From NCBI GenBank assembly GCA_026708565.1, contig JAPOUR010000001.1, forward strand, positions 1 through 33,794: 33,794 nt of DNA, read 5' to 3'. Position numbers and translations under genes: made by a program. The notes beneath the pieces were generated by a model, which was not told the origin of the DNA, made no database searches, and saw nothing but the letters and a program-made list of their open reading frames with translations. The DNA is from Candidatus Dadabacteria bacterium. GTDB lineage: Bacteria; Desulfobacterota_D; UBA1144; Nemesobacterales; Mycalebacteriaceae. Shown piece by piece: positions 6,561-33,794 of this stretch (its first letter is position 1; every line of letters begins with the position of its first letter).

Positions 6561-7985
6561 TCAGTCTCCCCACTCGCGCACGTCCACAAAGCGCCCCTCA
6601 ATCGCCGCCGCCGCCGCCATAACGGGGCTCGCGAGATGAGTGCGTCCGCCCTTGCCCTGACGCCCCTCAAAGTTTCTGTTGGACGTGCTTGCGCACCTCT
6701 CTCCGGGGGCGAGAATATCGGGATTCATTCCGAGGCACATGCTACATCCGGACTCGCGCCACTCAAAGCCCGCCTCTTTCAGTATTTTGTCTATCTCCAT
6801 TTCCTCCGCCTGTTTCTTGACGCTCTGAGAGCCCGGCACCACCATGGCGCGCACGCCTTCCGCCACTTTTTTGCCTTTAACAAGGCGCGCCACGGCGGCA
6901 AGGTCTTCTATGCGCGAGTTTGTGCATGAACCGACAAAAACCCTGTCTATTTTGATGTCTTTGATGGGCGTTCCGGGTTTGAGACCCATATACTCAAGCG
7001 CCCTCCGCACGGTGTCGCGCTGCTCGCCGGTTTGCTCGCTGTCAGGGTCGGGAACGCATGAGTTTATGTCCGCCACCATTCCGGGGTTTGTTCCCCATGT
7101 TACCTGAGGGGCAATCTCCGCCGCATCCATCACGAGGGTCTTGTCAAACGCCGCGTCCTCATCCGACACGCAGTCTTTCCAATCCTCAAGCGCCTTGTCA
7201 AGCATTTCGCCCGAAGGCGCATACCGCCTGCCCCGCGCATACTCAAAAGTCTTTTCGTCCGCGGCTATCATTCCCGCCTTCGCGCCCGCCTCTATGGACA
7301 TGTTGCACACGGTCATCCTCTCTTCCATTGAGAGGTCCCGGACGGCTTCGCCCGCGTATTCAACCGCAAATCCGGTCGCCCCGGCGGTTCCTATGCGGCC
7401 TATGACGGCGAGGATGATGTCCTTTGCCGTAACGCCCGTTCCCTTTTTGCCGTCAACCCTGATTTGAAAAGTCCGGGGGCGGGTCTGCCTGAGGCACTGG
7501 GTCGCAAGCACATGCTCAACCTCGCTTGTTCCGATTCCGAACGCCAGAGACCCGAACGCCCCGTGTGTGGAGGTGTGGCTGTCGCCGCAGACAATCGTCA
7601 TTCCCGGCTTTGTGAGGCCGAGTTCGGGTCCTATGACGTGAACAATGCCCTGAAGGTCTTCAATCCCCGCGGCGGGCGCGATGTCAAAAAGGGAGACGCC
7701 GAATTTCTGGCAGTTTTCCCTGAGCGCCTCAATCTGCCGCGCGCTGATCTCATCGTCTATGGGCGCGCCCCTCGGCGTTGTGGGCACGTTGTGGTCCATT
7801 GTGGCGAAAGTCAGGTCGGGGCGGCGCACCTTCCTGCCTTCAATTGAGAGGCCCTCAAACGCCTGAGGCGAAGTTACCTCGTGAACCAGATGAAGGTCTA
7901 TGTAGAGAATGTCGGGCTTTCCCTCTCCGCCCTCGCTCACGAGGTGGCGGTCCCATATTTTTTCAAGAAGTGTTTTTCCGGCCAT
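6561..7985 (-). CDS. leuC: 3-Isopropylmalate dehydratase large subunit
   Basis: The 474-residue aconitase-family large subunit, which carries the [4Fe-4S] cluster used to interconvert 2- and 3-isopropylmalate. The cluster ligands are Cys354 in VGSCTNSR and Cys414/Cys417 in [12 protein letters not shown]. Other family blocks are MDHNVPT (63-69), [13 protein letters not shown] (133-145) and NRNFEGRQG (437-445). Length is normal for bacterial LeuC. The ATG shares its last base pair step with the stop of the upstream coiled-coil gene (TGATG), so translation is probably coupled. No leuA or leuB lies in the window. Confidence 0.96.
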
Positions 7986-8488
7986 CAGGAGTTTTCGTCT
8001 TCTTTAAGAAATGCGGGAGTTTTGTAGGAGACATGCTGTTCCATTTTTGCCTCAACCCTTGCAAGCCGTTCGCCGAATTCCTCATTTCTTTCCCCGATTC
8101 GTTTCAGGACTTCATCTATTTTTCCGTCTATTACTTGAATTCTGCGCGCGTTGTCTTCAATTCCGCGCGCGTTGCTTGCAACCTTTTCTTCAATATTTCC
8201 GAATCTTCCTTCAATACTGCCGACTTTTTCTTCAACACTGCTGACTTTTCCCTCAACACTGCTGACTTTTTCTTCAATACCGCTGACTTTTCCCTCAATA
8301 CTGCTGACCTTTCCTTCAATACCGCCGACTCTTCCTTCAATATTTCCGACCTTTCCTTCAATACTGATGATCTTCCCTTCCATGCCGCTGACTTTTTCCT
8401 CAATACCGCCGACTTTCTCTTTGAGAGAATCAAACTCCGGAACAACCATGTCTTTCAGCAGTTCCCGCATGTCTTTTACAAAACTCAC
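7985..8488 (-). CDS. Heptad-repeat coiled-coil protein of unknown function
   Basis: A 167-residue protein dominated by a long coiled coil. The start is GTG at 8488, chosen because GGAG lies 6 nt upstream. An upstream in-frame ATG at 8566 would fall inside eno. After a short N-terminal helix (residues 1-25) come eleven consecutive near-identical heptads (26-102) of the form V-S/G-x-I/V-E-G/E-K. Val or Ile holds position a, Ile, Val or Met holds d, and charged residues hold e and g. A more degenerate coiled coil follows (103-155), then a short hydrophilic tail. There is no signal peptide or membrane segment. The beta-branched a/d core suggests a stable parallel oligomer, perhaps a trimer (inference). 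It sits between eno and leuC on the same strand and overlaps leuC by 1 nt. Function unknown. Confidence 0.8.
8183..8413 (-). repeat. Eleven tandem 21-bp units encoding coiled-coil heptads
   Basis: Eleven imperfect 21-bp direct repeats (231 bp) inside the coiled-coil gene. On the plus strand each unit has the form cttcaatactgctgactttt with substitutions at a few positions. Every unit encodes exactly one heptad and the frame never breaks, so unit number can vary by slippage or unequal recombination without frameshifting the protein. Confidence 0.9.
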
Positions 8489-8513
8489 TTTTTTCTCCGC
8501 AACCCCAATCCTA

Positions 8514-9788
8514 TCAGAAGTTTTCGTTACCGGCAAACACCGCCCGCTTGCCGAGTTCCTCCTCAATTCTGAGCAGGCGGTTGTATTTTGCGGTTCTTTC
8601 CCCCCTGCACGGCGCGCCGGTTTTTATGCGTCCGCAGCCCGCGGAAACCGCTATGTCCGCGATGGCGGCGTCCCCGGTCTCGCCGGAGCGGTGCGACACC
8701 ATGCGCGAGTATCCCGCCTCCTTCGCGCAAGCCATGGCGTCAAACGTTTCCGACAGAGTTCCTATCTGGTTTACCTTGATAAGGATTGAATTCCCCGCGC
8801 CGGTTTTTATGCCCTTCTCAAGACGCCGCCTGCTGGTGACGAACAGGTCATCCCCCACAATTTGAACCTTCCCCCCGATGCGGGACGTAACCTCGCGCCA
8901 GCCCTCCCAGTCGTTTTCGTCCATGGGGTCTTCAATGGACACTACGGGCCAGTTGTTCACCCATTTTTCATACATCTTTCCAAGGGCGGCGGATGAAAGC
9001 CGCGCCCGTCCGACCCTGTATTTGCCGCCGTCAAAAAACTCGCTCGCCGCCGCGTCCATTGCGAGAGACACCTGCGTTCCGGTTTTGTAGCCCGCCTTTT
9101 CCGCCGCTTCGGCCATAAACTCCATCGCCTGCTCGTTTGAGCGCAGGTTCGGGGCGAAGCCCCCCTCGTCTCCGACCGCCGTGGCAAGCCCCTTTGATTT
9201 CAGGAGCGATTTCAAACTGTGAAACACCTCAACCCCCGCCCGCAGCGCCTCCGAAAATGTTTTGAATCCGTGCGGAACAAGCATGAACTCCTGAATGTCC
9301 AGATTGTTGTCCGCGTGCGCGCCGCCGTTGATGATGTTCATAAACGGGACGGGCAGGCGCGGTTTGCCGCCGCTCATGCCTGAGAGGTGGCGGTAAAACG
9401 GCGCTTTTTCCGATGCCGCCGCCGCCCGCGCCGCCGCCAGAGAGACCCCTAAAATTGCGTTTGCGCCCATGCGCGACTTGGTTTTTGTTCCGTCCGCGCG
9501 AATCATCGCGCCGTCAACATCGGCTTGCCGCCGGGCGTCAATCCCCCTCACCGCCCGCGCGAGAATGCCGTTGACATTGCCCACCGCCTTAAGGACGCCC
9601 CTGCCGCCGTATCTGCTCTTTCTTGCCGAGTCTCTGAGTTCCCGCGCCTCGTATTTTCCGGTTGACGCCCCCGAAGGGACCGCCGCCCTGCCGAAAGAGC
9701 CGTCCGAACAGAGAACATCCACCTCAACGGTGGGATTTCCGCGCGAATCAAGAATCTCTCTCGCCTTTACGGTTTTAATTTTTGCCAT
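8514..9788 (-). CDS. eno: Enolase
   Basis: A 424-residue phosphopyruvate hydratase that interconverts 2-phosphoglycerate and phosphoenolpyruvate. Visible motifs are [10 protein letters not shown] (39-48), GGAHADNN (155-162), catalytic Glu208 in GDEGGFAPN, Mg ligands Asp245 (AMDAAASEF), Glu286 (SIEDP) and the GDD at 312-314, catalytic Lys338 in [13 protein letters not shown] (335-347) and [10 protein letters not shown] (364-373). The last block has Gly where Glu is more common (SGETED). The ribosome site is strong (AGGAGGAG, complement of 9796-9803) and lies inside the 3' end of the hemW-like gene, whose stop falls 14 nt into eno, so the two are probably coupled. Enolase is close to PTS regulators that ultimately use phosphoenolpyruvate. 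Confidence 0.97.
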
Positions 9789-17026: not shown

Positions 17027-19276
17027 ATGGCTAAATCCCTTGTAATAGTTGAGTCGCCCGCGAAGGCGAAGACGATAAGGCGCTACCTCGGCAGTGATTA
17101 CGAGGTGGAGGCGTCCGTAGGGCATGTGGTTGACCTTTCGGACAAGACGCACGGCAGGCTGGGCGTTGACCTTGAAAACGGGTTCAAACCGGATTACGAG
17201 GTCATCAAGGGCAAAAGCAAGGTTATTGCGGCCCTCCGCAAATCGGCGAAAGGAAAAGACACCGTATATCTCGCCACAGACCCCGACAGAGAAGGCGAAG
17301 CAATCGCATGGCACATTTCGCAGCAACTGAAACTGGGCGACCGCGCCCGCCGGGTGCTTGTGCGCGAAATAACAAAAGAGGGCGTTCTTGAAACCTTCAA
17401 AGACACCGAACAGATCAATCAAGCCAAGTTTGAAGCCCAGCAGGCGCGGCGCATACTTGACAGAATAGTCGGCTACAAAGTGAGCCCGCTCCTGTGGAAA
17501 AAAATCGGGGGCAACCTCAGCGCGGGAAGAGTTCAGAGCATCGCGCTGGGTCTTGTCGTAAAAAGAGAGCGCGAAATAGAGGCGTTCAACCCCGTTGAAT
17601 ACTGGAAGATAGAGGCGCGTCTGCGGACGGCGGAAGGCGAGGTTTTCAGCGCCCATCTCCGCAGTTTCAAAGGTTCGGAAGACGAAATACCGGACGAAAG
17701 CAAAGCCCTTGAAATAGTGCGGGCGGTTGAGGGAGAGCGGTTTGCCGTCTCCTCCGTTGACAGCAAAAAACTGAACATGAAACCGCCCGCGCCGTTTATA
17801 ACCAGCACTTTGCAGCGCGAAGCCTCAACCCGGCTGGGCTTTTCCGTGAAGAAAACAATGAATCTCGCCCAGCGCCTCTACGAGGGCATTGAGATTGGCT
17901 CGGAGGGTCCCGTGGGGCTGATAACCTACATGAGAACCGATTCCGTCCGCCTGTCGGAACGCGCCATCGCCGAGGCGCGGAGTTTTATCGCAGACAGATA
18001 CGGCGCGGATTTTGTCCCCGAAAAGCCCAATGTCGCAAAAGTCGGCAAGGGCGCTCAGGACGCGCACGAGGCAATCAGGGCAACCTCAATAGAGAGAACC
18101 CCTGAGGAAATGGCAAAGTTTCTTGAAAGAGACCAGGCGCGTCTTTACGAATTAATATGGAAACGTTTCGCGGCAAGCCAGATGTCCGCCGCCGTTGACC
18201 AAAAGACAACCGCGGACATAACGGCGGGCGAGGCGGTTTTCCGCGCCGCCGGAACGGTTGAGATGTTTGCCGGATGGAGGGCGGCAAGTCCCCCGGCGAA
18301 AAGATCAGGCGACACGGAGCTGCTCCCCGCCCTCTCCGAAGGCGACAGCCTTGAATGCGAGGAAACCCTGCCCACCCAGCACTTCACAAAGCCCCCCGCC
18401 AGATACAACGAGGCGTCTCTGGTTAAAGACCTTGAGAGCAAAGGCATAGGCCGCCCGTCAACCTACGCCTCAATCATCTCCACAATACAGGACAGGGAGT
18501 ATGTGGTTAAGGAAAACAAAGCCCTCAGCCCCACCCGGCTGGGCGTTGCCGTCAATGACTACCTTGTCAGGGATTTCCCTGATATTATGGATGAGAAGTT
18601 CACCGCCAGAGTGGAGGAGAGGCTGGACAAGGTTGAACAGGGCAACGAAAAATGGGACGGGATTTTGAACGACTTTTACCTTGACGAAGACTCCGGCTTG
18701 AAAAAACGGGTTGAGACGGCGGAGAATTCCGCAAACGAAGTGGAAACGACCGACATAAACTGCGACAAATGCGGCAAGTCCATGGTTGTGAAACGGCGGC
18801 GGCTCGGCGGCGAGTTTCTCTCCTGCTCTGGCTACCCGGAGTGCAAAAACGCATCCGACTTTGAAAGGGACGGAGACAAAATAACGCTCAAGCAAACCGA
18901 AGAGCCGGAGGAGACCGGCATAAACTGCGACAAGTGCGGCGAGCCGATGGTGATAAAGAAACGCCGGAGCGACGGCGCGGAGTTTCTCGCCTGTTCGGGC
19001 TACCCCAAGTGCAAAAACGCGTCCGATTTTGAAAGAGACGGCGGCAAAATCGTTCCCAAGCAGACCGAAGCGCCGGAAGAGGCGGGCATGGAGTGCGACA
19101 AGTGCGGCAAGCCCATGCTGATAAGGAAACGCAGAAAAGACGGCGCGGAGTTTCTTGCCTGTTCGGGCTATCCCAAGTGCAAGAATGCGTCCAACTTTGA
19201 GCGTCTGGAAGACGGCTCAATCAAGCGTATTGACAGGAAGAGGTCAGATTCCCGCAAGCAAGGCAAAAACGGCTGA
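17027..19276 (+). CDS. topA: DNA topoisomerase I (type IA) with three C4 zinc fingers
   Basis: A 749-residue TopA that relaxes negative supercoils. The TOPRIM domain opens the protein (SLVIVESPAKAKTI, and the acidic cluster TDPDREGE at 84-91). The catalytic tyrosine is Tyr301 in ITYMRTDS. The C-terminal 150 residues hold three tandem C4 fingers of the form CDKCG...F-L-S/A-CSGYPxCKN. The start at ATG 17027 is set by GGAGGTG 8 nt upstream, located in the last codons of the epimerase gene. The open frame extending further upstream is not used. A 47-nt overlap with recG follows if recG starts at 19230. Confidence 0.96.
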   Translation: MAKSLVIVESPAKAKTIRRYLGSDYEVEASVGHVVDLSDKTHGRLGVDLENGFKPDYEVIKGKSKVIAALRKSAKGKDTVYLATDPDREGEAIAWHISQQLKLGDRARRVLVREITKEGVLETFKDTEQINQAKFEAQQARRILDRIVGYKVSPLLWKKIGGNLSAGRVQSIALGLVVKREREIEAFNPVEYWKIEARLRTAEGEVFSAHLRSFKGSEDEIPDESKALEIVRAVEGERFAVSSVDSKKLNMKPPAPFITSTLQREASTRLGFSVKKTMNLAQRLYEGIEIGSEGPVGLITYMRTDSVRLSERAIAEARSFIADRYGADFVPEKPNVAKVGKGAQDAHEAIRATSIERTPEEMAKFLERDQARLYELIWKRFAASQMSAAVDQKTTADITAGEAVFRAAGTVEMFAGWRAASPPAKRSGDTELLPALSEGDSLECEETLPTQHFTKPPARYNEASLVKDLESKGIGRPSTYASIISTIQDREYVVKENKALSPTRLGVAVNDYLVRDFPDIMDEKFTARVEERLDKVEQGNEKWDGILNDFYLDEDSGLKKRVETAENSANEVETTDINCDKCGKSMVVKRRRLGGEFLSCSGYPECKNASDFERDGDKITLKQTEEPEETGINCDKCGEPMVIKKRRSDGAEFLACSGYPKCKNASDFERDGGKIVPKQTEAPEEAGMECDKCGKPMLIRKRRKDGAEFLACSGYPKCKNASNFERLEDGSIKRIDRKRSDSRKQGKNG
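18752..19200 (+). repeat. Three tandem zinc-finger repeats in topA
   Basis: Three copies of a 55-56-codon unit, with first cysteine codons at 18761, 18926 and 19094. Copies 2 and 3 are the most alike (GAEFLACSGYPKCKNAS), and copy 1 differs (GGEFLSCSGYPEC). The linkers between fingers also repeat (FERDG..I..KQTE.PEE), so whole finger-linker units were duplicated rather than the fingers evolving separately. Confidence 0.85.
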
Positions 19277-26410: not shown

Positions 26411-26902
26411 CTACTGCTTGAAATACTGGTTCAGGTTGTCCTGCCCGACCCAGTTTTGCTGTTCCTCGTCTTTCTGGATTTTGTAGTCTTTGTGCCATCC
26501 GATATCGTCTCCGGGACCCGGCTCGCGGTCTCTCTTGTCAAAGATCGCCTTGAAGGTTGAAAACACCCTTATCGCCTTTTTGCTCCCGCAGGACGGGCAG
26601 GGCGGCGCGGGTCCGCCGACTTCCACAATCTCGCTGAATCTGAAATCTTTCAGTTCAAGATACAGTATGTTTCCGCCGTCAAGCGTATAGCGAAACCTTC
26701 GCGCCGCCCGCGAGCGGGTCTTTTCGCCGACTGAGAAAACCGGCGCCCCGTCTTTTTCTTTTGTAACCTCAATGTAGAGAAACCCCGGATTGCCTTTTGA
26801 GATTGCCGAGGCGTTTTTTTTGGTAAGACGGCGGACGAGGGCGGAGATGTCGCCGTTAAACTTTCCCGCGCACTGTTCACATTCGTACTCGTAAATGGGC
26901 AT
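26411..26902 (-). CDS. FmdB-like split zinc-ribbon protein, copy A
   Basis: A 163-residue protein opening MPIYEYECEQC (Cys8/Cys11), the classic FmdB start, with the second knuckle CPSCGSKK (Cys102/Cys105) followed by AIRVFSTF. The 90-residue spacing contains an insert with a basic helix (ALVRRLTKKN), FLYIEVTKEKDG, a basic stretch (RSRAARRFRY) and NILYLELKDFRFSEIVEVG. The D/A-FRFSE-I/L block just before the second knuckle is shared with copy B and corresponds to the F-E-V/E region of ordinary FmdB. The C-terminal tail is hydrophilic (DDIGWHKDYKIQKDEEQQN). It is first of the pair and is transcribed away from the DUF262 island. Confidence 0.72.
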   Translation of the reverse strand: MPIYEYECEQCAGKFNGDISALVRRLTKKNASAISKGNPGFLYIEVTKEKDGAPVFSVGEKTRSRAARRFRYTLDGGNILYLELKDFRFSEIVEVGGPAPPCPSCGSKKAIRVFSTFKAIFDKRDREPGPGDDIGWHKDYKIQKDEEQQNWVGQDNLNQYFKQ

Positions 26903-26950
26903 GACAAGAACTGTTTAACTCTACACGGAATTGCAGGTTTTTGCACAGTG

Positions 26951-27060
26951 TCAGGCAACGGACGCCAACTCACAGGCCATCGCCTCGGAGAGCCTTATAG
27001 GGCGGGAAACCGCTTTGCTCACAAGACCGGTATCAACAGTATCTCGCCAAAGTCGGAAGA
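26951..27060 (-). pseudogene. Relic of a crotonase-family (enoyl-CoA hydratase-like) gene
   Basis: On the complement, a reading frame ending in TGA at 26951 encodes DTGLVSKAVSRPIRLSEAMACEL, which resembles the helical part of enoyl-CoA hydratases. The bases 27000-27034 (complement) match 28 of 35 positions of the intact crotonase gene at 30881-30915. Several differences are synonymous (ACC/ACG, GGT/GGA, GTG/GTA), as expected for diverged coding sequence rather than chance. The catalytic half and the C-terminal region are absent. It lies in the 243-bp gap between the FmdB-like pair and the DUF262 gene, in inverted orientation to the intact copy. The count is by eye, and coincidence is not excluded. 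Confidence 0.45.
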
Positions 27061-27067
27061 AAAGGGT

Positions 27068-27073
27068 TATAAT
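27068..27073 (+). promoter_or_regulatory. -10 box of the DUF262 operon
   Basis: A perfect TATAAT stands in an AT-richer stretch (GGGTTATAATTTGCC). The -35 region at the normal distance (around 27045-27050) is poor, so activation or weak expression is possible. The predicted start near 27080 leaves a leader of about 65 nt that contains a stem-loop at 27092-27109. Confidence 0.5.
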
Positions 27074-27091
27074 TTGCCTTACAGAGATTTG

Positions 27092-27109
27092 TTGGTCTGA
27101 AAAGACCAA
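27092..27109 (+). promoter_or_regulatory. Stem-loop with GAAA tetraloop in operon leader
   Basis: TTGGTCTGAAAAGACCAA forms a perfect 7-bp stem (TTGGTCT pairing with AGACCAA) closed by a GAAA loop, a stable GNRA-type tetraloop. It lies between the -10 box and the ribosome site AGGAGG of the DUF262 gene, 23 nt before the latter. As DNA it is also a 7-bp inverted repeat with a 4-bp centre, so it may be a repressor operator. No T-run follows, so it is not a standard terminator. Confidence 0.5.
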
Positions 27110-27145
27110 GAGATGGCTGAAAACAGATTTACAGGAGGTTTTGCT

Positions 27146-28276
27146 GTGACAGGTCACCCGCAAGTATTAGTTGACGAGCAAGAGATTCGCCTTGACGGAG
27201 ATGACACGAGTAGCGGTCAGGTCAACATAACAGAACCGTTTGACCCTACCAAAATCAGAGTTGAGACGAAAAACGCGCAGATGGACGCTCTCATCAAGCG
27301 GATCAAAAACGATGAGATTGATCTCAGTCCGGACTTTCAGCGTCAGGCCGTATGGAAAAATGAGGCAAAGAGCCGACTGATAGAATCTATGCTGATTAGG
27401 ATTCCGTTGCCCGCTTTTTACATGGATGCGAGCGATGACAGCAAGTGGCTGGTGGTGGACGGACTGCAACGTCTTACCGCAATCAAGGAGTTTGTTGTGG
27501 ACGGGTCGTTGTCCTTGACCGGATTGGAGTTTTTAACCGAGTATGATGGGGAAACATTCAGTGAACTCCCCCGCAGTTTGCAGCGCCGTATAGAGGAAAC
27601 AGACATTGTGCTGTATCTAATCCAGCCCCAAACGCCGCCAAAGGTGAAGTTTGATATATTCCGCCGAATCAATACCGGAGGCGAACCGTTGAGTTTACAG
27701 GAGATTCGCCATGCTCTTAATCAGGGAAAGGTCACGAAACTCCTGCCCCGTATGGTCAGTAACGAATTTAAGAGAGCCACGGCCCGAGGGGTATCTCCCA
27801 TACGAATGGATGACCGTGAGTGTGCGTTGCGATTTCTCGCCTTTACCTTGCATTCTCCGGATGACTACGAGGAAGATAACTTTGACCTGTTTCTCAACAA
27901 TACCATGTCCAAATTGAACGAGATGGACGACCTCAAGTTAAAAGGCTATGAAGAGTTGTTCAAAAAGACAATGGAGTGTGCCTGTTCAGTTTTCGGGGAC
28001 AGGGCTTTTCGTAAACAATACGAAGGTGTTGAACATCGTCACCCTGTGAACAAGGCGCTGTTTGAGGCGTGGAGTGTGAACATAGGGAGGCTGAGCGATG
28101 ACGAGCGACAGACCCTTATGGAAAAACGTGATGTACTGGTGGATAAATTCAAGAATTTGATGGATTCCGACAAAACCTTTGAATCCTCCGTTTCATACGG
28201 GACCGGATCAAAAAAGAATGTCCGCTACCGCTTCAACCGGATAGCCGAAATCATTCAAGAGACAATCAATGATTGA
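27146..28276 (+). CDS. DUF262 (ParB/GmrS-like) domain protein, island gene 1
   Basis: A 376-residue protein from GTG 27146, chosen because a perfect AGGAGG (27133-27138) sits 7 nt upstream. The in-frame ATG at 27113 has no good site. The DUF262 core is clear: IDLSPDFQRQAVW (59-71), the VVDGLQRLTAI motif (103-113, DGxQR) and DIFRRINTGGEPLSLQEIRHAL (170-191). DUF262 has a ParB/sulfiredoxin-like fold that binds or cleaves nucleotides and DNA in GmrSD- and SspE-type defence proteins. Here the C-terminal half is helical and no DUF1524 HNH nuclease motif is visible. The gene has lower GC than its flanks and overlaps the downstream ATPase gene by 8 nt. Confidence 0.88.
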   Translation: MTGHPQVLVDEQEIRLDGDDTSSGQVNITEPFDPTKIRVETKNAQMDALIKRIKNDEIDLSPDFQRQAVWKNEAKSRLIESMLIRIPLPAFYMDASDDSKWLVVDGLQRLTAIKEFVVDGSLSLTGLEFLTEYDGETFSELPRSLQRRIEETDIVLYLIQPQTPPKVKFDIFRRINTGGEPLSLQEIRHALNQGKVTKLLPRMVSNEFKRATARGVSPIRMDDRECALRFLAFTLHSPDDYEEDNFDLFLNNTMSKLNEMDDLKLKGYEELFKKTMECACSVFGDRAFRKQYEGVEHRHPVNKALFEAWSVNIGRLSDDERQTLMEKRDVLVDKFKNLMDSDKTFESSVSYGTGSKKNVRYRFNRIAEIIQETIND

Positions 28277-29375
28277 CTCCATGCGCATCAAAAACTTCAA
28301 GTGCTTCAGGGATGAATCTGTTTCCCTAAAGCCGCTGACAGTGCTTTCCGGTATAAACGGCATGGGCAAGAGCACTTTTATACAAATCCTGTTGTTTTTG
28401 CGACAATGGGGGTTTCAGTTGTCCGGCGACAATCACGCCAGAGCAAATTTGAACGGGCCTCTTGTCAACTTTGGCTATACGGAAGATGTGTTGCATGAGA
28501 AGGCTGAAGAAAAAGGGGAAGACATCATTCTTGCCATAGGTGGAGACGGGAGCGAGAAAGAATACCGTTTCAGTTGTCCGGATGGGGAAAAATGGATTGA
28601 AAGCCTCTCCGGCAAGCCTTTGGATACAAGCGATAGTCTTTTAGGGGAAAGTTTCTATTATCTTGGAGCTGAAAGAATCGGTCCGCGGTTGTCTTTCCTG
28701 TCATCTAATCTTGGAGGCGGGGAGAAAAGAATCAATGCAATAGGAAACAGCGGCGAGTATTGCGCATGGCTGTTAGCTAATGCTGAACGGGATAGTGTTG
28801 AGAATGACTCGCGGATTCATCCCGATGAATCTATATATGAATTGAGGGCGCAAGTTGAGGCATGGCTGTCAGAGATTGGCCAATCCGCCAGAATACACCT
28901 TAACAACCACAAGGATATGGACAGGGTAAGCCTCCAGTTTTCTTTCGTTCGTGACCGCATCACCAGTCGTTATTACCGCCCCACTAATGTGGGATTCGGC
29001 CTTACCTATGCGCTCCCAATCTTTGTTGCCGGTTTGCTTTCAAAGAAAGGAGGTCTGGTAATCATAGAAAATCCTGAGGCACATTTGCACCCGAAAGGTC
29101 AGTCCGTTCTGGGAAAATTTCTTTCAGGAGTGGCGAATAGCGGAGTTCAAGTCATTGTGGAGACTCATAGCGACCATCTGTTGAACGGCATCAGGATTTC
29201 TGCAAAAAACGGAGAAATAGATTCGGAATCTGTGGCTCTGCACTTTTTTCAGAGAGATGAGGGGGACCAGTCCACCAAGATAGTCACGCCAAAAATGGAC
29301 AAAAATGGCCGCTTGGATGAATGGCCTGAAGGATTTTTTGACGAATGGGAAAGCAGCCTGACAGAATTGCTGTAG
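28269..29375 (+). CDS. AAA/ABC-like ATPase with DUF3696 tail (COG4938 type), island gene 2
   Basis: A 368-residue predicted ATPase of the RecF/SMC-like ABC class. The N-terminus IKNFKCFRDESVSLKPLTV is followed by Walker A SGINGMGKST (27-36, Lys34). The signature-like block is NVGFGLTYALPI (240-251), Walker B is LVIIENPEAHLHP (263-275) and the switch is VETHSDHLL (297-305). The last 25 residues (KNGRLDEWPEGFFDEW) are the DUF3696 end. No TOPRIM or nuclease domain is attached, unlike OLD or GajA proteins. The start is ATG 28269, overlapping the DUF262 stop. ATG 28281 (MRIKNF) is also possible. Related ATPases occur in several defence systems, usually energising or gating a partner effector. Confidence 0.9.
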   Translation: MIDSMRIKNFKCFRDESVSLKPLTVLSGINGMGKSTFIQILLFLRQWGFQLSGDNHARANLNGPLVNFGYTEDVLHEKAEEKGEDIILAIGGDGSEKEYRFSCPDGEKWIESLSGKPLDTSDSLLGESFYYLGAERIGPRLSFLSSNLGGGEKRINAIGNSGEYCAWLLANAERDSVENDSRIHPDESIYELRAQVEAWLSEIGQSARIHLNNHKDMDRVSLQFSFVRDRITSRYYRPTNVGFGLTYALPIFVAGLLSKKGGLVIIENPEAHLHPKGQSVLGKFLSGVANSGVQVIVETHSDHLLNGIRISAKNGEIDSESVALHFFQRDEGDQSTKIVTPKMDKNGRLDEWPEGFFDEWESSLTELL

Positions 29376-29384
29376 GATGATTTC

Positions 29385-30335
29385 ATGGATCAGATATTCA
29401 ATGAACTTTCCGCCAATGGTAGTTACGATTCAAAATACAGCGCCTGTGCGGGTATGGAGAATCTTGCGTGCCTGTCTTTAGAGATGGCGAAGATTGGATT
29501 TAGCGGGAAACTGCGGACGGTTCAAAACTTCCACCAACTCCCCATTGCTCCTGACTTTACGATTTCTGATTGGGCTAATGAAAAGAAAGGGGTAGACAAG
29601 GAAAAACGACAATGGCTTCTTTTCTCCGCCACTCAGCATCCTTACATTGAGGATTTCATGGAGAAGGAGCAGGACAATAGTCTTGTAGAGTTCAAATTTG
29701 ACTGCAAGAAGTGTCTGGGTCTCGGTTTGGCATTTCTGTGGGATTGCGGCGCTCTTTCGCTGGATGGGGATGAGCGATTCAGGCAGGACGCTGTTGAGGC
29801 ATCTTTGTATCAGATTGACAGTAACGACAAGGAGTCTACGGAAACGGTGAAAATCCTGTCATGGTATTCACGGGAACAATTGCCTTCCATAAGAGATGTT
29901 CTTGTCAAAAGCGAGAGAAAATCCATATCAGACGGCGAGGGGTTGCTTTCAAAATCGTTGTCGCTATTTCCCGCGCTATCCATTGGTCAGAAAGCGTCTA
30001 AGCAATTACAAACTTTCAAAGGCAGTGAACAGCATTTTCAAGAAATTATCCGCCATTTTAGTGTGTTGAATGAAACAATGCGGAATTGGAAGTCTGGGCC
30101 GTTTGCTCCGCAGGGAGTAAGTTGGTCTCCTGAGTCTCAACCCACTATGGAACAATTTGCCAAAGAGCGCGAGTTTATATGTTCTGACAGAGAGAAGCGG
30201 ACATTCAGTCTTCACTCAAGGATTAGCTCCGCCAATGCCAATCTCCGCATTTACTTTCTCCCCGATACAAGTAATAAAACCGTCCATATCGGCTATGTCG
30301 GAACACACCTTCCTACGGTAAAACACAGGACCTGA
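29385..30335 (+). CDS. Protein of unknown function, island gene 3 (candidate effector or accessory)
   Basis: A 316-residue protein that I cannot assign to a named domain. It follows the ATPase by 9 nt with AGGATG as ribosome site, so it belongs to the same operon. There is no signal peptide or membrane segment. Three parts can be seen. The N-terminal third ends in a PIAPDFTISDWANEKKGVDK block and a short ATQHPYIEDF motif. The middle (about 100-200) contains FKFDCKKCLGLGLAFLWDCGALSL, with Cys residues and a hydrophobic core. The C-terminal third has RTFSLHSRISSANANLRIYF and HIGYVGTHLPT. The basic R-x-Y-F plus GYVG.HL ending is compact and could be a small catalytic or binding unit, but no function is established. 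Confidence 0.85.
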   Translation: MDQIFNELSANGSYDSKYSACAGMENLACLSLEMAKIGFSGKLRTVQNFHQLPIAPDFTISDWANEKKGVDKEKRQWLLFSATQHPYIEDFMEKEQDNSLVEFKFDCKKCLGLGLAFLWDCGALSLDGDERFRQDAVEASLYQIDSNDKESTETVKILSWYSREQLPSIRDVLVKSERKSISDGEGLLSKSLSLFPALSIGQKASKQLQTFKGSEQHFQEIIRHFSVLNETMRNWKSGPFAPQGVSWSPESQPTMEQFAKEREFICSDREKRTFSLHSRISSANANLRIYFLPDTSNKTVHIGYVGTHLPTVKHRT

Positions 30336-30337
30336 TA

Positions 30338-31141
30338 TTGCCCCGCCGACATGAAATTGCCAGCGAACTGCTTATTTCCGTTTCGGACGGGGTGGCTTCG
30401 CTTGAGATAAACAGGCCGGAGAAGATGAACTCTCTTTCTCCCGCCGTTCTTAACGGAATTGCCGATGCGCTGGGGAGGTTCTCATCCGAAGGGGACGCCG
30501 TCCGGTGCGTTGTGCTGTCGGGGCGAGGGGGGAAGGCGTTTTCTTCGGGATACGACTTCTCTTTTATCGGCTCAAATGACATGACACGCGATTATACGGG
30601 AAAAAAACACCCGCTCGCAGAGGCTTGCGAGGCGATTGAACAGTTTGCCAGACCCGTTATCGCAATGGTCTGCGGACACGTTCACGGCGGAGGGCTTGAA
30701 CTCGCGCTCGCTTGCGATTTTGTTATCTGCTCGGACGATTCCAAATTCTCCATGCCGCCCGCAAAACTGGGGATTGCCTATCCGTTCTCAGGGCTGGCAA
30801 GGGTCGCCCGCGCGGTCGGTATCGCCAACGCAAAAAGGATGTTCTTCACCGCAGAAACACTCTCCGCCTCAAAGGCGCTTGAAACGGGACTTGTAAGCGA
30901 AGTGGTTTCCCGCTCCGCGCTCAAAGAGGCGGCGGACACGGCGGCGCGGCAAATCACCGCCGGAGCGCCGCTTTCCATTGAAGCCGCAAAACTTGGGCTG
31001 AACTCATGGGCGGAGGGAGTAAGAGGAAAAGGGACGGAAGAAATGAAGAAAGCCGCGCAGAAGGCGCAAGACAGCGATGACTTCAAAGAGGGTATGGAGG
31101 CGGTTTCGGCGAAAAGGAAGCCGGTTTATCGGGGGAAGTAG
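30338..31141 (+). CDS. Crotonase-family enzyme, methylmalonyl-CoA decarboxylase-like
   Basis: A 267-residue crotonase-fold protein. The oxyanion-hole segments are KAFSSGYDF (66-74) and GHVHGGGLELALACD (113-127). Glu121 of the hydratase pair is present, but the second Glu position is Pro141 in FSMPPAKLG. The run FSMPPAKLGIAYPF and the C-terminal DFKEGMEAVSAKRKP resemble E. coli methylmalonyl-CoA decarboxylase (ScpB/YgfG). Its catalytic tyrosine corresponds to Tyr148 here, while the His of ScpB (in SAGHD) is Tyr72. Activity on methylmalonyl-CoA or another acyl-CoA is therefore plausible, and classic enoyl-CoA hydration is less so. The start is TTG 30338, only 2 nt after the island stop. Base composition returns to the host level here. 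Confidence 0.82.
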   Translation: MPRRHEIASELLISVSDGVASLEINRPEKMNSLSPAVLNGIADALGRFSSEGDAVRCVVLSGRGGKAFSSGYDFSFIGSNDMTRDYTGKKHPLAEACEAIEQFARPVIAMVCGHVHGGGLELALACDFVICSDDSKFSMPPAKLGIAYPFSGLARVARAVGIANAKRMFFTAETLSASKALETGLVSEVVSRSALKEAADTAARQITAGAPLSIEAAKLGLNSWAEGVRGKGTEEMKKAAQKAQDSDDFKEGMEAVSAKRKPVYRGK

Positions 31142-31144
31142 GGC

Positions 31145-33794
31145 TCAAAACCCAAACCGCAAACCCACATTGGCGCGGTATTCCATTATCTCCGAACCCA
31201 GAGAAACGGCGGCTTCGCCGAAAACTCCGCGCTCTTTGCCCCATGTGTACGAACCGCCCACACTCAAATCTCCGGCAATTGATTCAAGTTCACTGGTCAA
31301 ATTGTCAGTATGAGTACTGCTCCCCCTGCGGACTCTCACAGCCGTCTCGCCGTCCAGAGGGACGAGCAGGTTCAGCCCCGCGTAAACATTGCCTTTGCCC
31401 GCCTCACTGTCGCCGTATTCGCTTTCGCTTCCAAGCGCCTTTAACTCCTTGTCCACAAACACGCCCACACGCCCGGTAAGGGCTGCGCCGTCTTCAAGAG
31501 AGGCGGTTTCCGTGCCGAGTGTATTGCGGAAGTCGTCAAAATCCGCCGTAGTCCAGATTACCTGCGCCTGAGGGGTAACATTGACGCCGCTCAGGGGGTA
31601 GCGGTATCCCGCCTCTCCCGATACGCTGAAAGCGGTTGCGTCACTGCCGGAAACCGACAGTTGGGAGGAAGTCAGGTCGCTGGAAAAGAGGGCGTATTGA
31701 AACTGCCCGTCCGCGTAAAAGTTGCCCTGTTCCATAGTGGCGGTGGCGGCAACGGAGTAGCCGGTGGTTTCTATCTCGCCGTCTCCGGGCGCGATATCGG
31801 TGTTAGCCAGTCCGAACCAGACATTGCCTCCGAGTGTCAGCCCCTTCACTTCTTCAAAGGGATAGTCCGCGCCGAAGCGGATGCGTGTGTCTTGAATGTC
31901 ATACTCGCTTTTGGCTGTGGATACGCCCGGTTCAAACGAGGCGACAGACCCTTCAACCCGTCCCCATACGCCCACGCCTTTTTCGTCCTGCCAGACACGC
32001 CCCTCAAGACGCTGTTGCATTGAGGGAAGGGAGGAAAGTTGCGCAAGCGTTGCGGGGTAACTTTCTATTACTTTTCCGACATCGCCGAAGCCGTCTCTTA
32101 TGAAAGCACAAGCACCCGCCGCCGAGTCGCAGTTGAGTCTGAAAGCGTAGAATCCGGAGTCTGCGCTTCCGGTGAAATGGTTTGCCGCATTTGCCGCATC
32201 TGCGCCAAATAAGCTGATGACATTGTGAGTCCTCGCCGCCGCATTCGGGTTGCCGTGGATGATGAGGTCAATCGGGGTTGTGCCGGTTACCTCGTTGGTG
32301 ATGTTGAGGATTGAGAATCCTCCAGTCGCAAAGTTGGCGCTCATAACCAGCCGTCCGCCGTTGCCGGCATAGTTGCCGCTTATGGTAACACTCGCATCTT
32401 CATCAAGAAACAGAGCGCCATCGTCAAGGGAGAAACTTTCATCAACAGTTACCGAGCCGTCAATTGCCCATGTATTGGGTCCGGTTTTCCGCACTGTGTC
32501 AAAGCCGCTCAGTTGTCCCAAGTTAAACGAGGGGGTATTGGCGAACGGCGCGGTGGCGGCGGCAAGTTCAAATGTCGTGTTGTCTCCGGCTGCCGTTATA
32601 GCGCCTATGATATTTGCGCCCGGGCGCAGTCTGACCAGAGCGCTGTTGCTTGCGCCGGTGCGGACGGCGTGTTCGCCCCCTCTAACTGTTCCCGCAATAT
32701 CCACGACAATATCTCCGAGGTTTCCATTGCTTCTGCTGATTCCGGCAAAAATGCCTGTTCGCATGGCGGCGGGGGCATTGACCGATGCGCCCGGGGCAAC
32801 ATTAACTGTTATATCACCCGTGCCTTTATGATCCAGAGCGACGCCGCCTAAACTTGCGCTTGTGATGTTGCCGGTAACATCAATGTTCAGGGCGGAAGAG
32901 TTCACCCCCGTTCTGGCGTCAACGCCGCGCCCTATGGAAGTCCCGGTAGTGTTAATGTCTCCGCCGATGGTGATATTGAGGTCGCCTCTGGTGTCGTGTC
33001 TGGCGAGAATTCCGCCGCTTTGCGCAGAACCCGAAGCGTTGATGTTGCCCATCGCCATAATGTTCATGCCGCCCGGAGGATTGCCGGTGTGACCGATTGT
33101 GTTGGCGGCGGCGTCAATGCCCCAAGCGCCGGTTGTCATAATGTTGGCGTTGGGGGCGAGGAAGATTGACAGTTCGCCTCTGCCGAGATGCTCGGCTTTT
33201 ATGCCCAAACTTCCGCTTCTTATGTCGCCTGTGGCGTTGATGGTTACCGAGGACTGGCTTATGCCTGTGGTTTCCACATCAATGCCGTTATCCACAGCGT
33301 TGATATTGCCGCCGGAGTTAATTACCACCGCGCCCAAGCCCTGATGCCCGATGTAGATGCCCCGGTTTCCCGCCGTGATAGCGCCGGTGGCATTGACGGT
33401 TATGCTATCGGCGGCGGCGGTGGTAATTAAGTCAATGCCGTCCTGTGCGGCGTTGAGAGCCGCCGGAGTAGTTAATTGCCCCGTGCCATCAAGTATCTGC
33501 ACTCCGATGGCGTCTGTGCCTCTGGAGCTAACAGTACCGCCGATGGTGGCATCAAGACTGCCGCCCGGTACAGTAACCAGAGAGAGGGCTCTGCCTGTCG
33601 CTACATTCATACCGAAACCGGGTTCGGTGGTTACCACAAACCTCTCGCCATGAGTGGCGGAAGGGGATTGGGTCGTGTCCATAGTCGGGTCTGCCGCGCC
33701 GCTGCATGTCCATGCGCCGGGTGTGCCTGAGACTCGCTCACACATTCCCGCCGATGCCTTTTCGCCCGCGCCCGGAAACAGAGCCGTCCCCAGC
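31145..33794 (-). CDS. Autotransporter adhesin-type protein (5' end beyond window)
   Basis: The frame is open from the window edge to TGA at 31145, at least 883 codons. The first in-window Met is at 33745, but upstream codons continue in frame (ALFPGAGEKASAG), so the signal peptide lies outside. The passenger (about the first 590 residues) is a Gly/Asn/Thr-rich parallel beta-helix with repeated strands of the form SVTINATGDI.SG..GI and G.GDITV, alternating with AGI/IDA loops. The last 270 residues form the 12-strand beta-barrel (from GVWGRVEGSVASFEPG) and end YRANVGLRFGF with the terminal Phe needed for outer-membrane insertion. It is secreted by type Va and probably displayed on the surface. 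It converges on the crotonase gene with a 3-nt gap. Confidence 0.9.
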   Translation of the reverse strand, partial: LGTALFPGAGEKASAGMCERVSGTPGAWTCSGAADPTMDTTQSPSATHGERFVVTTEPGFGMNVATGRALSLVTVPGGSLDATIGGTVSSRGTDAIGVQILDGTGQLTTPAALNAAQDGIDLITTAAADSITVNATGAITAGNRGIYIGHQGLGAVVINSGGNINAVDNGIDVETTGISQSSVTINATGDIRSGSLGIKAEHLGRGELSIFLAPNANIMTTGAWGIDAAANTIGHTGNPPGGMNIMAMGNINASGSAQSGGILARHDTRGDLNITIGGDINTTGTSIGRGVDARTGVNSSALNIDVTGNITSASLGGVALDHKGTGDITVNVAPGASVNAPAAMRTGIFAGISRSNGNLGDIVVDIAGTVRGGEHAVRTGASNSALVRLRPGANIIGAITAAGDNTTFELAAATAPFANTPSFNLGQLSGFDTVRKTGPNTWAIDGSVTVDESFSLDDGALFLDEDASVTISGNYAGNGGRLVMSANFATGGFSILNITNEVTGTTPIDLIIHGNPNAAARTHNVISLFGADAANAANHFTGSADSGFYAFRLNCDSAAGACAFIRDGFGDVGKVIESYPATLAQLSSLPSMQQRLEGRVWQDEKGVGVWGRVEGSVASFEPGVSTAKSEYDIQDTRIRFGADYPFEEVKGLTLGGNVWFGLANTDIAPGDGEIETTGYSVAATATMEQGNFYADGQFQYALFSSDLTSSQLSVSGSDATAFSVSGEAGYRYPLSGVNVTPQAQVIWTTADFDDFRNTLGTETASLEDGAALTGRVGVFVDKELKALGSESEYGDSEAGKGNVYAGLNLLVPLDGETAVRVRRGSSTHTDNLTSELESIAGDLSVGGSYTWGKERGVFGEAAVSLGSEIMEYRANVGLRFGF

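What the first reader, a model, noticed from the sequence alone, without database searches (positions are those of the whole stretch)
27068..30335. Three-gene low-GC island: DUF262 + COG4938/DUF3696 ATPase + unknown protein, a candidate defence module
A compact operon (8-nt overlap, then a 9-nt gap) of clearly lower GC stands among about 60% GC housekeeping genes. For example, 28261-28320 counts to 25/60 GC, while 18001-18060 counts to 36/60. The DUF262 protein keeps FQR and DGLQR but has no HNH/DUF1524 domain. The ATPase has all ABC motifs but no TOPRIM or nuclease. The third protein is unrecognised. DUF262 and such ATPases are known separately in anti-phage systems (GmrSD, SspE, OLD/Gabija-like). 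This set does not match any named system I can recall, so the third gene is the natural suspect for the effector.
Basis: partly seen in the sequence, partly recalled or inferred. Interest (0 to 1): 0.75.

Follow-up and report, generated by a model that had tools for sequence, protein, structure and literature searches.

The report
Menshen anti-phage operon (NsnABC)
These three genes are a complete copy of Menshen, an already named bacterial anti-phage defence system, inserted between two housekeeping genes; the third gene looks like a toxin-type effector whose tail resembles RelE/HigB/YoeB RNA-cutting toxins.

Summary
In detail: three tightly packed + strand genes (27113-28276, 28269-29375, 29385-30335) form a lower-GC block (46.9% against 57.4% for the rest of the window). 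In 15 of 19 relatives examined, the two flanking genes (FmdB and enoyl-CoA hydratase) sit next to each other with nothing between, so the block is an insertion, not a housekeeping operon. It is not an unnamed system. PADLOC profiles identify NsnA (E=1e-143), NsnB (4e-116) and NsnC (4e-59), i.e. Menshen (Millman 2022). NsnC has a conserved N-terminal domain and an exchangeable C-terminal slot. In four Bacteroidota loci that slot is a clear Pfam YoeB toxin; here its predicted fold and profile resemble RelE/HigB, and the family's only two invariant residues (H277, R288) lie in it. Best model: NsnA (DUF262 NTPase) and NsnB (ABC ATPase) sense infection and release an RNase-like NsnC that stops translation. 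The RelE assignment is suggestive, not proven, and may already be in the 2025 Menshen 'domain polymorphism' paper, which was not readable here.

The parts
26903..30337 (+). Inserted block between the FmdB gene (26411-26902, -) and the enoyl-CoA hydratase gene (30338-31141, +); the left edge within the intergenic region is not resolved
   Evidence: The corresponding interval is about 50 bp in the congener G001 (L013) and has no insertion in 14 other genomes of the order; GC 46.9%
27044..27073 (+). Promoter-like site TCGCCA-N18-TATAAT, 39 nt before nsnA (weak evidence)
   Evidence: 10 of 12 matches; number of such sites in the region not above shuffles
27113..28276 (+). nsnA: DUF262 / GmrSD_N (ParB/Srx-fold) NTPase-like protein, no HNH domain
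   Evidence: PF03235 E=2.7e-24; PADLOC NsnA E=1.2e-143; AF2 model pLDDT 86 with weak SspE/ParB fold matches; profile match to BrxU 7p9k E=1e-3
27335..27343 (+). FQR motif (NsnA 75-77), invariant
27458..27472 (+). DGLQR motif (NsnA 116-120); D, G, Q, R invariant in 40 homologues
28269..29375 (+). nsnB: OLD/RecF-like ABC-type ATPase ending in DUF3696, no TOPRIM
   Evidence: PF13175 E=2.5e-26, PF12476 E=5.6e-18; PADLOC NsnB E=4.1e-116
28350..28373 (+). Walker A GINGMGKS (NsnB 28-35; G28, N30, G33, K34 invariant)
29385..30335 (+). nsnC: third protein, probable effector
   Evidence: PADLOC NsnC E=3.6e-59; no Pfam match
29385..29966 (+). NsnC N-terminal domain (residues 1-194), shared by NsnC proteins with different C-termini
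29967..30332 (+). NsnC C-terminal domain (residues 195-316), RelE/HigB-like predicted fold
   Evidence: AF2 pLDDT 95; Foldseek hits to RelE-family toxins, TM-score on target 0.43-0.66; hhalign to RelE and HigB families above all controls
30213..30215 (+). codon of His277, invariant in 51 NsnC
30246..30248 (+). codon of Arg288, invariant in 51 NsnC; aligns with the conserved Arg of RelE/HigB
30306..30308 (+). codon of His308 (75% of NsnC); aligns with the Arg/His of the last RelE/HigB strand

Best explanation
The block is a complete Menshen (NsnABC) anti-phage operon acquired by horizontal transfer between FmdB and enoyl-CoA hydratase genes. Inferred mechanism: NsnA, a DUF262 NTP-binding switch of the GmrS/BrxU/SspE kind without its own nuclease, and NsnB, an OLD/RecF-like ABC ATPase, form the sensing and switching part. 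On infection they release or activate NsnC. NsnC carries a conserved N-terminal docking domain and a C-terminal RelE/HigB-like toxin domain that probably cuts mRNA at the ribosome, shutting down translation and aborting infection. Shown here: system identity, insertion, motifs, modular NsnC, and YoeB toxin domains in the same slot of related NsnC. Inferred: RelE-type fold of this NsnC (likely), RNase activity, the trigger, and the order of events. Separate estimates: Menshen identity about 0.97; NsnC is the effector about 0.75; RNase activity about 0.6.
For: System identity: PADLOC NsnA 1.2e-143, NsnB 4.1e-116, NsnC 3.6e-59, each essentially full length. The same A-B-C order recurs in at least 75 of 80 loci from cyanobacteria, Bacteroidota, actinobacteria, clostridia, archaea and others. 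Insertion: FmdB and enoyl-CoA hydratase are adjacent and divergent in the congener G001 and 14 other genomes. Defence context: the homologous operon in G032 lies beside AbiEi and BrxA/B/C; a plasmid copy is flanked by transposition and recombinase genes. Effector: NsnC evolves about twice as fast as its partners (median pairwise identity 41% A, 40% B, 23% C). The N-terminal domain is shared while the C-terminus is swapped: four Bacteroidota loci carry Pfam YoeB_toxin there (E 2e-16 to 8e-21). NsnC model pLDDT 95; 9 of the top 32 Foldseek hits are RelE-family toxins, the only listed hits with target TM-score above 0.5. hhalign to RelE-type and HigB-type families scores 26 and 29, against at most 15 for 100 column-shuffled controls (RelE only) and at most 22 for unrelated-protein windows.
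Against: No sequence profile of a RelE-family toxin matches this NsnC, no Foldseek hit reaches E 1e-3, and the hhalign probabilities are only 39-46%; known RelE sister families score 95-97% against each other. hhalign to YafQ and to the YoeB-type NsnC domains was negative. The HigB alignment covers only the last 36 columns. RelE-fold proteins include gyrase poisons (ParE), so the fold does not fix the target. No activity data exist for this locus. Some other NsnC C-termini have no recognised toxin domain.
Confidence: 0.7

Rival explanations
1. Menshen in which NsnC is the sensor or specificity subunit and NsnA/NsnB form the effector, for example a DNA-damaging OLD-like ATPase switched by DUF262.
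For: NsnC is the fastest-evolving component, as expected of a sensor of variable phage triggers; [quoted passage not shown] NsnB is OLD-like.
Against: NsnB ends after DUF3696 with no TOPRIM, and NsnA has no HNH or other nuclease domain; NsnC C-termini are openly YoeB toxins in four loci.
Confidence: 0.15
2. NsnC has a RelE fold but is a gyrase or other protein poison, or has lost catalysis and only binds ribosomes or nucleic acid.
For: ParE toxins share the fold and poison gyrase (general knowledge); the best fold matches include the PfiT toxin; similarity to proven RNases is weak.
Against: Invariant H277 and R288 and mostly conserved H308 match the kind and placement of RelE/HigB catalytic residues; the swapped-in homologues are YoeB-type, which are RNases.
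Confidence: 0.15
3. An unnamed new defence system.
For: No Pfam match to gene 3.
Against: All three proteins match the Nsn profiles strongly.
Confidence: 0.01
4. A vertically inherited housekeeping operon.
For: It is directly followed by the enoyl-CoA hydratase gene.
Against: Absent at this site in the congener and 14 other relatives; nearest homologues lie in Chlorobiaceae (58-63% identity for A and B).
Confidence: 0.01

Closest known systems
Menshen (NsnA, NsnB, NsnC; Millman et al. 2022)
   Same: Same three protein families, gene order and orientation; full-length profile matches
   Different: Nothing beyond ordinary sequence divergence; the host is a small-genome bacterium (1.57 Mb assembly)
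GmrSD / BrxU / SspE
   Same: DUF262 NTPase-like domain with FQR and DGxQR
   Different: No DUF1524 HNH nuclease; works with a separate ATPase and NsnC
OLD / Gabija GajA / PARIS AriA ATPases
   Same: OLD/RecF-like ABC ATPase family for NsnB
   Different: NsnB lacks TOPRIM and has DUF3696 at its C-terminus
RelE / HigB / YoeB toxins
   Same: Predicted fold and order of elements of the NsnC C-terminal domain; matching Arg and His positions; YoeB itself in the same slot in four Bacteroidota NsnC
   Different: Fused to a Menshen N-terminal domain, no adjacent antitoxin gene, and below detection by Pfam in this protein
PD-T4-2
   Same: Its DUF262 protein is the second-best PADLOC match of NsnA (E=1.9e-41)
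   Different: A different system; NsnA is far better and the NsnB/NsnC partners are present

Membership tests
Menshen | DUF262 protein matching NsnA | tested here: met
   PADLOC E=1.2e-143, residues 27-386
Menshen | AAA/DUF3696 ATPase matching NsnB | tested here: met
   PADLOC E=4.1e-116, residues 1-368
Menshen | Third protein matching NsnC | tested here: met
   PADLOC E=3.6e-59, residues 1-310
Menshen | Three-gene operon in order A-B-C | tested here: met
Menshen | Protection against phage | not testable with these tools
   needs expression and phage challenge
GmrSD / SspE / BrxU | DUF262 with FQR and DGxQR motifs | tested here: met
GmrSD / SspE / BrxU | DUF1524 HNH nuclease domain | tested here: not met
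   no Pfam match in any of the three proteins
OLD / Gabija | TOPRIM nuclease domain after the ATPase | tested here: not met
   368-aa protein ends in DUF3696
RelE superfamily (NsnC C-terminal domain) | RelE fold | tested here: inconclusive
   Foldseek to several RelE toxins, target TM 0.43-0.66 but E above 0.3; hhalign above all controls but probability 39-46%
RelE superfamily (NsnC C-terminal domain) | Match to a RelE-family profile over its cut-off | tested here: not met
   no such Pfam match in this NsnC or the other 50 members of the alignment
RelE superfamily (NsnC C-terminal domain) | Catalytic-type residues conserved | tested here: inconclusive
   H277 and R288 invariant, H308 75%; R288 and H308 align with RelE/HigB positions; mapping to known active sites is from general knowledge
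RelE superfamily (NsnC C-terminal domain) | RNA cleavage | not testable with these tools
   needs biochemistry

The most novel reading that the evidence does not exclude
In the main branch of Menshen, including this copy, NsnC ends in an undescribed, highly diverged RelE/HigB-type mRNA interferase that works without an antitoxin gene and is instead held in check and released by a DUF262 switch and an ABC ATPase; the slot is exchangeable with YoeB and other toxin domains.
Probability: 0.35. Interest if true: 0.5.

Novelty: new member of a known kind. Interest (0 to 1): 0.3.

Why it matters
A 2026 review still lists the Menshen mechanism as unknown (PMC12926258). Recognising a RelE/YoeB-type effector slot in NsnC gives a directly testable mechanism: translation shut-off by mRNA cleavage, with named residues to mutate. 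As a find in itself the locus is an ordinary copy of a known system.

Tried and rejected
Unnamed system: rejected by PADLOC. Housekeeping operon: rejected by empty sites. Plasmid relative of NsnC: none found by tblastn at E 1e-5, although NsnA and NsnB relatives are on plasmids. Intergenic 26903-27112 as a repeated element in the own genome: single copy. Flanking repeats or target duplications: only short two-copy repeats, nothing convincing. No tRNA in the window. NsnC against PDB sequences and against Pfam: nothing useful. NsnC against viral structures: nothing. NsnC C-terminus against YafQ and YoeB-type profiles by hhalign: negative. The 2025 Menshen paper (gkaf357) is not held.

Full report
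What is there. Three + strand ORFs of 387, 368 and 316 aa lie at 27113-28276, 28269-29375 and 29385-30335, with an 8-nt overlap and a 9-nt gap. The block from the end of the upstream FmdB-type gene to the downstream enoyl-CoA hydratase gene (26903-30337) is 46.9% GC against 57.4% for the rest of the window; no other stretch of that length before it in the window is below 55.2%. Sampled stretches from other contigs of the same genome show that the contrast is local rather than extreme: mean 55.3%, sd 4.9, with 7.9% of equally long windows as low or lower.

Identity. Pfam gives GmrSD_N/DUF262 for the first protein, AAA_15 plus DUF3696 for the second and nothing for the third; there is no DUF1524 and no TOPRIM. 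PADLOC gives essentially full-length matches to NsnA (1.2e-143), NsnB (4.1e-116) and NsnC (3.6e-59). That NsnABC are the PADLOC/DefenseFinder names of the Menshen genes (Millman et al. 2022) is my own knowledge; a review confirms that Menshen has a DUF262 gene tied to a predicted OLD-type protein, and that losing the DUF262 gene abolishes protection (PMC10952713).

Distribution and context. A scan with NsnB returned 80 loci in genomes from many phyla. NsnA is next to it in 78, and an NsnC-type gene follows in at least 75; most exceptions are short contigs. The closest set is from Chlorobiaceae, at 63/58/49% identity. In the congener G001 the FmdB and enoyl-CoA hydratase genes are divergent neighbours about 50 bp apart, and the same adjacency is found in 14 more genomes of the order, out of 19 loci examined: the site is empty there, so the block was inserted here, ending 2 nt before the hydratase TTG start codon. 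A homologous operon in G032 (same order, other family) sits between core genes and AbiEi plus BrxA, BrxB and BrxC. A plasmid copy in Methylobacterium is flanked by transposition and recombinase genes.

Components. NsnA keeps F75-Q76-R77 and D116-G-x-Q-R120 invariant over 40 homologues. Its model (pLDDT 86) gives only weak fold matches, led by SspE and including ParB-type proteins, and its profile reaches BrxU at E=1e-3. NsnB keeps Walker A with Lys34, the IENPEAHLHP Walker B region and the ETHSDH loop. NsnC is the fastest-evolving part: median pairwise identity 23% against 41% (A) and 40% (B) over 666 pairs.

NsnC. The alignment of 51 NsnC has only two invariant residues, H277 and R288, both in the best-conserved last third. 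AlphaFold2 gives a confident model (pLDDT 95). Its C-terminal part has the order strand, helix, long helix, then after an insert three strands (198-200, 202-209, 216-234, 276-282, 285-294, 299-307), which is the RelE order (general knowledge). Against the PDB no hit reaches E 1e-3, but 9 of the first 32 are RelE-family toxins (E. coli RelE, M. tuberculosis RelE1 and RelE2, T. thermophilus RelE, PfiT), and the RelE proteins are the only listed hits with a target TM-score above 0.5. To test this by an independent route I built RelE/ParE, YafQ and HigB alignments from the relatives' genomes. hhalign of the NsnC C-terminal alignment scored 26.1 with a RelE subset (colinear over 75 columns, R288 on the conserved RelE arginine) and 28.6 with HigB (36 columns, R288 on the WRI Arg, H308 near the DYH His). 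None of 100 column-shuffled versions exceeded 14.9 against the RelE subset, and windows from NsnA, NsnB and the NsnC N-terminus reached at most 22.3. The RelE subset was chosen after a first comparison with the broader ParE/RelE set, which scored 22.6, so this is supportive rather than decisive. YafQ gave no match.

Effector slot. The NsnC N-terminal domain (1-194) is found in nearly all third genes, but not always with the same C-terminus. In four Bacteroidota loci (L083, L091, L093, L101) the C-terminus is a clear Pfam YoeB_toxin domain (E 2e-16 to 8e-21); one locus has DUF4160, and several have unrecognised tails. This modular pattern, with an overt toxin of the RelE superfamily in the same position, is the best evidence that NsnC is the effector and that the tail of the present NsnC is its toxic part.

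Mechanism and limits. Shown: identity, insertion, motifs, modular NsnC, YoeB in the same slot elsewhere. Likely: RelE/HigB-like fold here. Inferred: NTP-dependent switching by NsnA/NsnB, release of NsnC, mRNA cleavage, abortive infection; the trigger is unknown. A paper entirely about Menshen domain polymorphism (gkaf357, 2025) is cited by others but not held and probably reports NsnC variation, so no priority is claimed. A 2026 review still lists the mechanism as unknown (PMC12926258).

Verdict. A real, intact, horizontally acquired copy of a known defence system: new member of a known kind. Moderate interest lies in the effector hypothesis.

Noticed in passing
window 30327-30340: The nsnC stop codon (30333-30335) is 2 nt before the TTG start of the enoyl-CoA hydratase gene, with an AGGA-like site inside nsnC; the insertion may have coupled a housekeeping gene to the defence operon.
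   Followed up: partly
L083, L091, L093, L101 (third gene after nsnB): NsnC proteins of Bacteroidota carry a bona fide Pfam YoeB_toxin domain fused to the NsnC N-terminal domain.
   Followed up: yes
L112 (G032:C150:9000-24000): A second Menshen operon in the same order lies beside AbiEi and a BREX set (BrxA, BrxB, start of BrxC).
   Followed up: partly
L113:6159-8236 (G001:C1): The congener carries a methyltransferase next to a DUF262 protein that matches a type II restriction enzyme profile and ends in an HNH-like stretch.
   Followed up: partly
G000:C17:2901-4244 (L196): The own genome encodes a second NsnB-like ATPase (E=9e-60 to the NsnB profile); its neighbours were not examined.
   Followed up: no
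window 31145-33745 (-): An 866-aa ORF near the window end with autotransporter-like repeats and a C-terminal beta-barrel-like region, without a Pfam match.
   Followed up: no
window 7985-8566 (-): A low-GC (44%), strongly skewed stretch encodes a coiled-coil protein with only coiled-coil-type Pfam matches, between aconitase-family and enolase genes.
   Followed up: no
L094, L108, L110: Marine gammaproteobacterial Menshen loci have NsnA of about 630-650 aa with a long N-terminal extension before DUF262, and a diverged NsnC; NsnA of L082 has an Mrr_N domain in its extension.
   Followed up: partly
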